DNA from: Mycobacterium sp.
GTDB lineage: Bacteria; Actinomycetota; Actinomycetes; Mycobacteriales; Mycobacteriaceae
Length of the DNA: 64,000 nucleotides
Assembly (NCBI GenBank): GCA_020438865.1
Contig: JAGQTU010000014.1
Span: 1 to 64,000, forward strand
Reading direction: 5' to 3'
Shown here piece after piece: positions 26,322 through 28,850 of the stretch. Positions within the stretch are counted from its first letter, which is position 1. Each line of letters opens with the position of its first letter. A program made the position numbers and the translations under genes. The notes below the pieces were generated by a model. It was not told the origin of the DNA. It did not search any database and saw only the letters and a program-made list of their open reading frames with translations.

Positions 26322-26801
26322 GTGCCGATCTACGCCGCCTACGGATCCAACATGCATCCGGAGCAGATGCTGGAGCGCGCACCGCATTCGCCGATGGCCG
26401 GAACCGGCTGGCTGCACGGCTGGCGGCTGACCTTCGCCGGTGAGGACATCGGTTGGGAGGGCGCGCTGGCCACCCTGGTCGAGGACCCCGATTCCAGCGT
26501 CTTCGTCGTGCTCTACGACATGACACCCGCCGACGAGGAGACCCTGGACCGCTGGGAAGGCTCCGAGCTGGGCTTCCACAAGAAGATCCGCTGCCGCATC
26601 GACCGCGAATCCTCGGACACCACAACCGATCCCGTGCTGGCCTGGCTGTACGTCGTGGACGCGTGGGAGGGCGGGCTGCCCTCGGCCCGCTACCTCGGGG
26701 TGATGGCCGACGCCGCCGAGATAGCCGGCGCGCCGCCGGAGTACGTGCACGACATCCGCACCCGCCCGTCACGCAACATCGGTCCGGGCCACGGCGGCTA
26801 G
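26322..26801 (+). CDS. gamma-glutamylcyclotransferase-like protein (Rv3304-like)
   Basis: 159 residues. The N-terminus VPIYAAYGSNMHPEQM carries the YGSN loop typical of the gamma-glutamylcyclotransferase fold, and a conserved acidic centre (DEETLDRWEGSELGFH) follows. Fold members cleave gamma-glutamyl or similar amides, but the true substrate in mycobacteria is unknown. GTG at 26322 gives the same length as the M. tuberculosis neighbour Rv3304 and sits directly behind a leaderless-type promoter. It is divergent from lpdA, which starts 100 bp away. Confidence 0.78.
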   Translation: MPIYAAYGSNMHPEQMLERAPHSPMAGTGWLHGWRLTFAGEDIGWEGALATLVEDPDSSVFVVLYDMTPADEETLDRWEGSELGFHKKIRCRIDRESSDTTTDPVLAWLYVVDAWEGGLPSARYLGVMADAAEIAGAPPEYVHDIRTRPSRNIGPGHGG

Positions 26802-26808
26802 CCGCCAC

Positions 26809-26849
26809 CTTCTGTCGCGAGCGTGCGTGTCGGCATAGCGACGCGCCGC
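26809..26849. repeat. left inverted repeat flanking the AbiEi/DUF559 gene
   Basis: Begins 8 bp after the Rv3304-like stop. It contains CTTCT, the 16-mer CGCGAGCGTGCGTGTC, GCGAC and CGCCGC in the same order and spacing as the reverse complement of the repeat at 27838-27876, apart from a 2-nt insertion and four mismatches. Its placement just outside the AbiEi/DUF559 gene suggests the end of a discrete inserted unit. Confidence 0.75.
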
Positions 26850-26872
26850 TGAAGCGTGCACTTCGCGCACAA

Positions 26873-27758
26873 TCACACAGCGGCTGTGCGATCTAGATGG
26901 GCGCGGATCCGCGCGACCAGCGCCTGCGGCCGACGTCGCACATCGTCGGCGATCACCGGCACGACGGTCCAACCGAGGTCTTGCAGCGCGGCCAGCTCGT
27001 TGCGGTCGTGTCGCAGCGCTTCGGCGCCGGCGTGCCATTCGTCGCTGTCATACTCGGCAGCGACTTTGTGCTTCGGCCAGGCAAAGTCGAGCCTGCGCAG
27101 CCTGCCCCTGGCGTCGACGACCTCATGCTGCAGAACCGGCCTGGGCAGTCCGCCGTCGATCATCACCAGGCGACACTCGCTCTCCATCGGCGACTCGGCC
27201 CTGGCATCGGCGAGCGGAAGGAGTTCACGCACCTTCACGATGCCACGGCGGCCCTGCTGCGCGAGCGCGGCACGAGTCAACTCGGCCGAAGCGCAGCACC
27301 CTGAACGGAGCGGCATCGAGCACGGCGAGTGCCCGCGGACGGCGAAGCGTGCGAGCCACCTCGATGGCCGTCCAGGCCGGCGCCGTGGCCGGCCGACCGG
27401 AAACCATGATCATCGGCGCGCCGTCGCGGCGGTGCACGATCAGATCCTCGGCGGGCCGCAGTTGGTGTCCGGTTGGATTCAGCACATGCAAGTCGGTGTT
27501 GGCCTCGGTGTCGAAGCCGTAGACGCGGGCGGCGGTCGCAAGGCAGATCGCCACCACCTCACCGCATGCCAAGTCAAGACCCTTGAGTCTCGTGGCCGGA
27601 TCCGCAACACCGCGGCTGTATACCCCTCGCCAGATGCGCTCCACGGCAGCGCATTCCAGCAAGATCTCAAGGTGCCGCCGACTCACAACCGCCAGCATCT
27701 GCCCGGTCGTGGCCACCCCACCCTGCTTGTCGAAAAGTGCAACAAGCTCAGCATTCAT
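26873..27758 (-). pseudogene. frameshifted AbiEi-type antitoxin/DUF559 endonuclease-like gene
   Basis: Two adjoining reading frames make one protein of about 295 residues. The upstream part (ATG 27758, MNAELVALFDKQGGVATTGQ) is the winged-helix AbiEi antitoxin-like domain plus middle region through ARTLRRPRALAVLDAA. The downstream part, one frame over, continues PLRSGC...RRGIVKVRELLP and holds the DUF559/Vsr-like PD-(D/E)xK fold: PMESECRLV, LDFAWP, AAEYDSDEWH. The frames meet at base 27311, where the expected GCG-CTC codons are reduced to G-CTC, a net loss of 2 nt. Both halves otherwise look intact, so the lesion is recent, an assembly error, or a recoding site. A palindrome sits at the stop, and inverted repeats bracket the gene. 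Confidence 0.78.
26876..26888. repeat. palindrome CACAGC-G-GCTGTG at the 3' end of the AbiEi/DUF559 gene
   Basis: Perfect 6-bp arms around one base, covering the last codons of the minus-strand gene. With a nearby CGCACA/TGTGCG pair it could form an RNA hairpin. Confidence 0.35.
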
Positions 27759-27810
27759 TCTCGGCATCGTGCAGGGTGGGCACGCCGCGGAAAAGTCACC
27801 CTTGTGGGCA

Positions 27811-27870
27811 GCGAGCGTGCCCCGAATGCCCAGTCCCGCGGCGTGTCGCTGTACAGACACGCACGCTCGC
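27811..27870. repeat. long hairpin with 10-bp arms upstream of the AbiEi/DUF559 gene
   Basis: GCGAGCGTGC at 27811-27820 is exactly complementary to GCACGCTCGC at 27861-27870. The same decamer occurs a third time at 26817-26826 in the left repeat. The hairpin lies in the 132-bp gap between galE and the AbiEi/DUF559 gene. Confidence 0.5.
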
Positions 27871-27876
27871 GAGAAG
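27838..27876. repeat. right inverted repeat flanking the AbiEi/DUF559 gene
   Basis: Reverse-complement partner of the repeat at 26809-26849; the core 16-mer is identical. It ends 14 bp before the galE stop codon. The inner part GTGTCGCTGTACAGACAC is itself almost palindromic. Confidence 0.75.
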
Positions 27877-27890
27877 GAAGGGGTAGCGGG

Positions 27891-28850
27891 CTAGGCCCGC
27901 GAGCGGGTGAACTCCCAAGCGTCGGCGACGATCTCGTCGATGGAGGTGTGCCGCGGCCGCCAGCCCAGTTCGGTGATCGCCTTCTCGCTGGATGCGATGA
28001 GCACGGCCGGGTCGCCCGCGCGGCGTTCGACGTCGCGCGCGGCGATGGGCCCGCCGGTGACCCGCTCGCAGCAGGCGATCACCTCCCGCACCGAGAAGCC
28101 GGTGCCATTGCCGAGGTTGTAGATCCCGTGCGCGCCGGGCTGCGCGGTGGCCAGCGCCAGCACATGCGCGTCCGCCAGGTCGCGGACATGGATGTAGTCG
28201 CGGATGCAGGTGCCGTCCGGGGTCGGCCAATCGTCGCCGAACACCGAGATCTCCTCGCGCAGCCCGAGGGCCACCTGCAGCACCAGCGGGATGAGATGGG
28301 TCTCGGTGGCGTGCCGCTCGCCGAGCCCGGCGTAGGCGCCGGCGACGTTGAAGTAGCGCAGGCTGGTCGCGGCCAGGCCGTGCGCGGCGGCGTAGGACGT
28401 GATCGCGTTGTCGATCGCCAGTTTGGTGGCCCCGTAGGCGTTCGTCGGCCGGGTGGGCGCATCCTCGGTGATCGGCACCGACTCCGGCTCGCCGTAGGTG
28501 GCCGCGGTCGAGGAGAACACCAGCCGGGGGGTGCCGGAGACCCGGATGGCCTCGAGCAACTGCAGGGTCTTGACCACGTTGCCGAACCAGTACAGCTCCG
28601 GGGCCACCACCGACTCGCCGACCAGTGACTTGGCCGCGAAATGCAGCACCCCGTCGAACGATCCGCCGCCGAGCAACCCCGGTGCGGCGGCCACCATGTC
28701 GTCGTGGACGAAGCGCGCCCCGGCGGGCACGGCATCGGCGTTGCCGGTCGACAGGTCGTCGACGACGACCACCTCGTGCCCCTCCTCGAGAAGAACCTGC
28801 GCGCAGACGCTGCCGACGTAACCGGCACCCCCGGTGACCAGAAGTTTCAT
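27891..28850 (-). CDS. galE: UDP-glucose 4-epimerase
   Basis: 319 residues of the extended short-chain dehydrogenase family. Seen: NAD-binding TGGAGYVGS at 6-14, catalytic serine/threonine in FSSTAATYG (about 112-120), and the Tyr139-x3-Lys143 pair in NAYGATK. The enzyme interconverts UDP-glucose and UDP-galactose, supplying galactan precursor for the mycobacterial wall. The ATG at 28850 follows an AGGAAG site by 7 bases. It begins 11 bp after the amiA1 stop and reads in the same direction. In M. tuberculosis galE is not at this locus, so it appears inserted here together with the AbiEi/DUF559 unit. Confidence 0.9.

What the first reader, a model, noticed from the sequence alone, without database searches (positions are those of the whole stretch)
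26809..27876. AbiEi/DUF559 gene enclosed by ~40-bp inverted repeats: candidate mobile or selfish unit
A single gene joining an AbiEi-type antitoxin-like winged helix to a Vsr/DUF559 endonuclease-like domain occupies an intergenic slot whose ends are an inverted repeat (35 of 39 aligned positions equal, core 16-mer identical). The unit starts 8 bp after one stop codon and ends 14 bp before another, exactly between genes that are neighbours in M. tuberculosis. A nuclease-like gene within terminal repeats and no transposase suggests a non-autonomous or homing-like element not matching a known class.
Basis: partly seen in the sequence, partly recalled or inferred. Interest (0 to 1): 0.75.

Follow-up and report, generated by a model that had tools for sequence, protein, structure and literature searches.

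The report
Nuclease gene framed by mobile palindromes
In this mycobacterium a damaged DNA-cutting-enzyme gene sits between two copies of a short palindromic repeat; in relatives the gene is nearly always framed by its own matching repeat type, which is also scattered through the genome, pointing to an unrecognised system in which an unusual enzyme may spread or maintain small mobile DNA palindromes.

Summary
The inverted repeat is real. Each end is a ~60-bp imperfect palindrome whose core occurs 10 times in this genome (0 reversed controls). Of 80 named relatives of the enclosed AbiEi/DUF559 gene, found by protein similarity alone, 78 carry an inverted palindrome pair around it; of 149 neighbouring ORFs none scores 20 or more, against 75 of 78 units. 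Repeat type tracks the protein tree (13 changes, shuffled mean 33.5), the two arms match each other, the outer stem shows compensatory changes, and genomes with a gene type are richer in the matching repeat, with exceptions. Relatives have empty sites for the unit and for a solo palindrome. Inverted doublets resembling REPINs exist in relatives. The enzyme is AbiEi-like plus a Vsr/I-Bth0305I-like nuclease, not a Y1/HUH transposase. Best reading: a REPtron-like system built on an unrelated nuclease. Layout and co-variation are shown; that the nuclease moves the palindromes is inferred. The window copy is decayed. Ten searches of one open-access library showed no precedent.

The parts
26816..26876 (+). 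Left palindromic repeat (A type), starting 14 bp after the stop codon of the Rv3304-like gene; its closing arm is degraded
   Evidence: the DNA fold is no better than shuffles, z 0.01
27811..27871 (-). Right palindromic repeat (A type), inverted, ending 19 bp before the stop codon of the galE-like gene
   Evidence: DNA fold z -1.68
27309..27758 (-). N-terminal half (AbiEi-like) of the broken nuclease gene
   Evidence: Profile A2 match E 3.0e-71, profile positions 1-150; ORF 27225-27860; no Pfam match of that ORF on its own at E 0.01
26873..27316 (-). C-terminal half (Vsr-like MTES_1575/DUF559 nuclease) in another frame
   Evidence: PF18741 E 6.5e-7, under its curated cut-off; profile A2 match 26879-27313 E 9.7e-68, positions 150-294
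26323..26801 (+). Flanking Rv3304-like gene (name recalled); its stop codon abuts the unit
   Evidence: same neighbour in 43 of 80 named relatives
27891..28850 (-). Flanking galE-like gene (name recalled), convergent with the Rv3304-like gene
   Evidence: a homologue lies on the other flank of the unit in L192, L214, L216, L217

Best explanation
The window holds a decayed copy of a two-part system of Mycobacterium and its order: a gene for an AbiEi-like DNA-binding domain fused to a Vsr/I-Bth0305I-type nuclease, bounded by two inverted ~60-bp palindromes of a family that is also dispersed in the genome as solo copies and, in relatives, as inverted doublets. SHOWN: the gene-palindrome layout; its conservation; co-variation of repeat type and protein; stem-preserving changes; presence/absence of units and palindromes at fixed sites; dispersed copies more numerous where the matching gene type exists. 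INFERRED: the AbiEi-like domain recognises the palindrome (the lineage-specific middle base pairs of the stem being the specificity), the nuclease nicks or cuts it when it is extruded or single-stranded, and the released palindrome or doublet is copied or joined into a new site, usually just after a stop codon, by host replication or repair. The gene thus plays for these palindromes the part that the RAYT transposase is thought to play for REPs and REPINs, with an unrelated enzyme.
Against: No movement was observed and no target-site duplication seen. 11 of 45 genomes without a detected A or B gene, and 11 of 37 with only a weaker gene (the window's own, whose A gene is broken, among them), have >=3 A repeats; 14 of 78 without a B gene have >=10 B hits, so gene and repeats are not strictly coupled. 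One arm type (GC, 3 rows) does not cluster on the tree. Own-unit arms rank only 2nd to 6th of 41 genomes as match to that genome's dispersed copies. In the window's genome the 8 exact copies outside the unit are solo, none a doublet. The correlations are across related genomes and not corrected for ancestry. The query alignment was built from four units found as pairs, so the named sample is drawn around such units. The unit is mostly inherited in place. Outside the genus, 5 of 40 loci lack a pair, some of the 35 positives may be GC-rich flank similarity, and 200-kb samples of two genomes gave one cognate palindrome each. No enzyme activity has been tested.
Confidence: 0.62

Rival explanations
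1. Autoregulation: the AbiEi-like domain binds the flanking palindromes as operators; dispersed copies are further binding sites or chance amplification by unrelated processes.
Against: One palindrome lies at the 3' end, with the stop codon at its inner end in 53 of 69 units; dispersed copies with presence/absence and doublets are not explained; the nuclease-type residues are conserved.
Confidence: 0.14
2. Homing-type selfish gene: the nuclease cuts empty alleles and the unit is copied in by recombination; palindromes are by-products that protect or border it.
Against: Homing needs a recognition site in the empty allele, but the flanks differ (galE or amiA1, glyS, others) while the repeats stay alike; dispersed gene-free palindromes are unexplained.
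Confidence: 0.1
3. The palindromes are 3'-end terminators or RNA-stabilising hairpins kept by host selection; the gene lies between two of them by position alone.
For: 28 of 32 dispersed arms lie within 60 bp after a sense stop codon against 80 of 500 random positions; strong hairpins in doublets.
Against: Other genes are not bounded this way (0 of 149 with score >=20); repeat type tracks the nuclease; the argG-argH site differs between species in palindrome family or is empty; no Rfam match at gathering score in the window and seven loci.
Confidence: 0.08
4. Ordinary DDE or Y1 insertion sequences elsewhere in the genome move the palindromes as MITEs, and the nuclease gene is cargo.
For: Inverted pairs about 0.75-1.1 kb apart around other genes occur (4 of 8 such pairs looked at; L239).
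Against: One gene family sits inside in 78 of 80 relatives found by protein, and co-variation is with that gene. Presence of a Y1 or DDE element sharing these ends was not tested.
Confidence: 0.06

Closest known systems
REP/REPIN-RAYT systems (REPtrons), PMC2817692 and PMC3116915 (passages seen)
   Same: Gene bounded by two inverted palindromic repeats, repeats dispersed between genes, inverted doublets forming hairpins, repeat-enzyme co-evolution, enzyme presence linked to repeat abundance, orthologous enzyme genes that keep their place
   Different: Enzyme is an AbiEi-like plus Vsr-like nuclease, not a Y1 HUH transposase; palindromes ~60 bp with no GTAG tag in the consensus; actinobacterial hosts; lower copy number (0-51 A 13-mer copies; 0-146 B 14-mer hits, about two per palindrome)
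TIRtrons and GTAG/CGTC-tagged palindromes, PMC3733652 (passages seen)
   Same: Enzyme gene between inverted repeats that can also be dispersed; [quoted passage not shown]
   Different: TIRYT enzymes are tyrosine transposases; 'mycobact' and 'actinobacteria' occur 0 times in that text
I-Bth0305I / Vsr-type nucleases (PDB 3r3p, 1cw0)
   Different: Known members act in intron homing or mismatch repair (recalled), not tied to palindromic repeats
AbiEi antitoxins and Rv2827c (PDB 6y8q, 1zel)
   Different: Here fused to a nuclease and bounded by dispersed palindromes

Membership tests
REPtron (REP-RAYT) | Enzyme gene bounded by two inverted palindromic repeats | tested here: met
   78 of 80 named relatives
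REPtron (REP-RAYT) | Repeats dispersed in intergenic space | tested here: met
   28 of 32 arms examined lie just after a stop codon
REPtron (REP-RAYT) | Inverted doublets forming hairpins (REPINs) | tested here: met
   12 of 20 pairs, fetched because paired, are 121-450 bp doublets; two folded. Not seen in the window's own genome for A repeats
REPtron (REP-RAYT) | Repeat and enzyme co-evolve; abundance linked to enzyme | tested here: met
   with exceptions, and ancestry not corrected
REPtron (REP-RAYT) | Enzyme is a Y1 HUH transposase (PF01797) | tested here: not met
   Pfam at E 0.01: PF18741 52 of 52, DUF559 30 of 52, AbiEi_4 16 of 52, no PF01797; Vsr-type fold
REPtron (REP-RAYT) | GTAG tetranucleotide at one end | tested here: not met
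   Absent from the arm consensus
Insertion sequence with DDE transposase | Transposase gene between terminal inverted repeats | tested here: not met
   The enclosed gene matches nuclease and AbiEi models, no transposase model
Insertion sequence with DDE transposase | Target-site duplication | tested here: inconclusive
   Empty and filled sites are too diverged to define the junctions
Homing endonuclease element | Nuclease of a homing fold | tested here: met
Homing endonuclease element | Cuts the empty allele at its insertion site | not testable with these tools
   Needs biochemistry
AbiE toxin-antitoxin | AbiEi antitoxin paired with an AbiEii toxin gene | tested here: inconclusive
   Neighbours are Rv3304-like and galE- or amiA1-like genes; no search for AbiEii was made

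The most novel reading that the evidence does not exclude
A second, independently invented enzymatic route for REP-type palindromes: an AbiEi-fused Vsr-fold nuclease that recognises, cuts and disseminates its own cognate palindromes across the order of the window's genome, with several co-existing gene-palindrome types per genome competing for the same intergenic sites.
Probability: 0.5. Interest if true: 0.92.

Novelty: new variant of a known kind. Interest (0 to 1): 0.82.

Why it matters
In the papers seen here REP palindromes go with Y1 transposases, and one REP class apparently lacks a dedicated enzyme (PMC3733652). Here an uncharacterised gene family (AbiEi + DUF559/MTES_1575), which matches defence-library models, turns out to be bounded by and to vary together with palindromes. 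That gives the family a concrete substrate to test, offers an explanation for many intergenic hairpins of mycobacteria and relatives, and would be a case of convergent evolution of REP-type mobility with an unrelated nuclease.

Tried and rejected
A simple two-ended transposon unique to this site was rejected: 8 of 10 exact core copies in the genome are elsewhere. 'Only a chance pair of dispersed repeats' was my own reading; overturned it. Plasmid or phage carriage: 2 of 72,556 plasmid records and 1 of 50,697 phage records have weak matches, 31-35% identity. Known RNA family: none at gathering score in the window and seven loci. Sequence searches for the repeats in papers: 54 papers hold at least one of three typed stretches, 15 of them listed, none of those 15 on bacterial repeats by title and abstract start; with the mycobacter term 15 papers, judged by the listing only. 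DUF559 with inverted repeat and Mycobacterium, or with inverted repeat and transposase: 0 papers; with palindrom: 2, unrelated by the listing. Target-site duplication: tried by eye, not resolvable. A first count of stop codons in the right arm (69 of 78) used a loose pattern and was replaced (53 of 69). Not tested: presence of Y1 transposases in these genomes; copy numbers of the AC, CTCA and other arm types. The paralogue test in the window's genome was incomplete: one other DUF559 gene (C331) showed a pair of another type; C344, C220 and C47 (at a contig end) showed none above shuffles; C297, C24 and C14 were not properly read by that script; C14 was settled. The plain Foldseek search was never accepted, so only the VIA second look was obtained; it lists no HUH fold, which by its own note excludes nothing.

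Full report
WHAT IS THERE. The window carries two inverted copies of one repeat, at about 26816-26876 and 27811-27871, around the two halves of an AbiEi/DUF559-type gene. One search gives 56-nt arms, 77% complementary. The gene is interrupted: its N-terminal part (27309-27758) and C-terminal part (26879-27313) lie in different frames, each with a very strong match to the intact family (E 3.0e-71 and 9.7e-68). I read the two parts separately and did not join them. The closing arm of the left palindrome is also degraded; its fold is no better than shuffles (z 0.01). So the window copy looks like a decayed member, or its break is a sequencing error.

THE REPEAT IS A DISPERSED PALINDROME. The 14-mer core occurs 10 times in the genome and its reversed control 0 times. 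A relaxed pattern finds 10 places, one of them new; together 11 copies were read out. Copies have an outer stem GAGCGTGCG...CGCACGCTC and an inner stretch CGACACGCCG, with changes. In 148 genomes of the genus, 97 have the 13-mer, with up to 51 copies. Among the places listed there (a capped list), inverted pairs stood out, about 110-450 bp and about 0.75-1.1 kb apart. I fetched 20 of them because they were paired: 12 are doublets of 121-450 bp, and of the 8 longer ones 4 enclose the same AbiEi/DUF559 gene while 4 enclose other genes.

THE GENE IS REGULARLY BOUNDED BY THE REPEAT. To remove that selection I searched by protein alone, though with queries taken from those four units. First sample: 80 loci from the ranked hits, plus the 4 above. 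Of 73 A-type genes, 47 have both canonical arms within 2 mismatches, 9 have one and 17 none (43, 9 and 17 of 69 without the 4 picked ones). The left arm lies at -150 to -140 in 27 of the 47, and the right arm ends at +54 to +62 in 37 of the 47. Of the 26 without both canonical arms, 24 show a diverged or different palindrome pair at about the same places, L078 and L136 none; the 11 B-type genes show pairs of yet another type (read by eye; its cross-locus null is not clean, because other loci hold related repeats). Examples are GAGCGACCGTGTC, GAGCGCTCA and, for B, GAGCAGACGCAGAATCGCAC. Second sample: 80 named loci, the best 80 of 177 found in the genome collection. In 78 of 80 the upstream 300 bp and downstream 220 bp hold an inverted pair scoring above the best of 80 shuffles. 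Of the two misses, L158 has only 78 bp of contig after the gene; L185 is a true miss. Neighbouring ORFs in the same loci serve as control (the longest ORF on each side, not checked as genes): 149 tested, 10 above their own shuffles, none with score >=20, against 76 and 75 of 78 units. The two samples overlap in genomes and are not independent.

GENE AND REPEAT ARE BUILT TOGETHER. The base at the inner end of the arm is G in 53 of 58 left arms and A in 50 of 58 right arms. In 53 of 69 units with an anchored right arm the gene's stop codon, each time TGA, lies at the inner end of that arm. The outer stem changes on both sides: 93.9% of cells paired and 52 double changes, at most 8 when the partner strand is slid by 1-2 columns; among filled columns the strongest co-varying pairs are 7-53 and, after a crossed pair of the same four columns, 8-52. 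The two arms of one unit share their type in 49 of 52. On a tree of 91 proteins the repeat types need 13 changes against 33.5 when shuffled; the B and CTCA types each need one, the three GC rows do not cluster. Eight rows had no type and were not counted.

GENE TYPE GOES WITH REPEAT NUMBER. A-type 13-mer: median 6.5 in 66 genomes with an A gene (E <=1e-99), 0 in 37 with only a weaker, B-like gene, 0 in 45 with neither at 1e-50. The two copies in a unit itself are included. B-type 14-mer: median 18.5 hits in 70 genomes with a B gene (E below 1e-100), 2 in 78 without (a palindrome can count twice). Exceptions: 11 of 45 no-gene and 11 of 37 weaker-gene genomes with >=3 A copies (the window's genome is one of the latter, its A gene being broken), and 14 of 78 no-B genomes with >=10 B hits. 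Six A-gene genomes lack the A 13-mer (G045, G062, G066, G122, G125, G146). Genes of four of them were fetched (G045, G122, G125, G146) and carry other arm types (L129, L072 and L099, L096, L098); G062 and G066 were not fetched. Relatedness is not corrected. The window's genome itself has a B gene at C14 between two B palindromes and 42 B hits within 1 mismatch (0 controls), many of them as +/- pairs 44 bp apart.

MOBILITY. The 80 named units fall into 18 groups sharing both flanks: 37, 21, 4, 4 and 14 singles, some of them cut contigs. Two loci dominate: next to the Rv3304-like gene (43 of 80), as in the window, and next to glyS (name recalled). So descent in place is the rule. At the glyS locus, of 23 units looked at, glyS lies upstream in 7, downstream in 5 and was not placed by my motif in 11; the five (L148, L149, L154, L160, L171) form one clade of the tree, so the unit was probably turned round once. 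Empty sites: of 30 Rv3304 loci (the best 30 of 144 genomes with a match), 12 hold the gene; 13 have no room for it (seven with 0-19 bp to amiA1, one of which holds what looks like a relic of the repeat end, and six where, by eye, galE abuts Rv3304); one has repeat ends with another ORF (L239); one has a 180-bp gap; three have another neighbour. A solo palindrome of the window's genome lies between argG and argH (names recalled). In the 30 best-matching loci, the window's genome included, that gap is 69-101 bp in 29 and 27 bp in one; by eye they hold palindromes of at least four distinct types, including A, AC-type and B. In 20 loci fetched because the match was split or one-sided, it is -5 to 22 bp. 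Dispersed arms resemble each other more within a genome than between genomes (9.42 against 6.13, 0 of 1000 label shuffles as high), although the unit of the same genome ranks only 2nd to 6th of 41 in the five genomes tested. 28 of 32 dispersed arms follow a sense stop codon within 60 bp, against 80 of 500 random positions.

BREADTH. Of 298 genomes of the order, 149 match the profile at E <=1e-30, in 30 of 76 genera, the window's genus included. I fetched 40 loci from other families: 35 have an inverted pair above 100 shuffles, 5 do not. Many look like clear palindromes, and the inner stretch CGACACGCCG recurs by eye in several families; a few positives may be GC-rich flank similarity. In 200 kb sampled from each of two such genomes I found one dispersed palindrome of the matching kind each.

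HOW IT PROBABLY WORKS. [quoted passage not shown] PMC3116915 proposes inverted REP doublets (REPINs) as the mobile unit (passages). These traits are met here; two are not, the enzyme, which is a Vsr-fold nuclease instead of a Y1 HUH transposase, and the GTAG tag. I therefore propose that the AbiEi-like part reads the palindrome and the nuclease part cuts it in its folded form, releasing palindromes or doublets that re-enter elsewhere. Recognition, cutting and transfer are inferred; layout, conservation, co-variation and presence/absence are shown. Operator binding, homing, and terminator hairpins are the main rivals.

LITERATURE. Ten searches of one open-access library listed no account of DUF559 genes bounded by palindromes; subscription papers and preprints were not searched, and long hit lists were seen only in part.

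Noticed in passing
L383-L412, argG-argH gap: One short intergenic site holds palindromes of several unrelated families in different species (A, AC-type, B, a GAGTGTGAAT-like type, a CCCAAACGAAC-like type), as if they compete for it; the enzymes of the last two are unknown.
   Followed up: partly
L044, L045, L048, L050 and L239: Inverted repeat pairs about 0.75-1.1 kb apart enclose other genes (from my reading of the translations: DUF1326-like, carboxymuconolactone decarboxylase + DoxX-like, SDR, VanY-like, and an unidentified ORF in L239) instead of the nuclease.
   Followed up: no
L029 (G000:C331): A more distant DUF559 paralogue of the window's genome has its own inverted pair of yet another type, CGAGCGTGAAG...CTTCACGCTCG (score 23, shuffles up to 16.4).
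   Followed up: no
L148, L149, L154, L160, L171: The unit is turned round relative to glyS in one clade, as expected from recombination between its inverted ends.
   Followed up: partly
Arms in L143-L222 and in L343-L368: An inner stretch CGACACGCCG is shared by palindromes of otherwise different sequence, even across families; it may be a common recognition or cutting site.
   Followed up: no
window 27891-28850: A galE-like gene lies between the unit and the amiA1-like gene; relatives without the unit have either Rv3304-galE or Rv3304-amiA1 directly adjacent, so galE itself is variable here.
   Followed up: no
L237, between Rv3304 and amiA1: An otherwise empty site holds CCGTGCACGCTCGCGG, which looks like a relic of the repeat's end, suggesting loss of a unit.
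   Followed up: no
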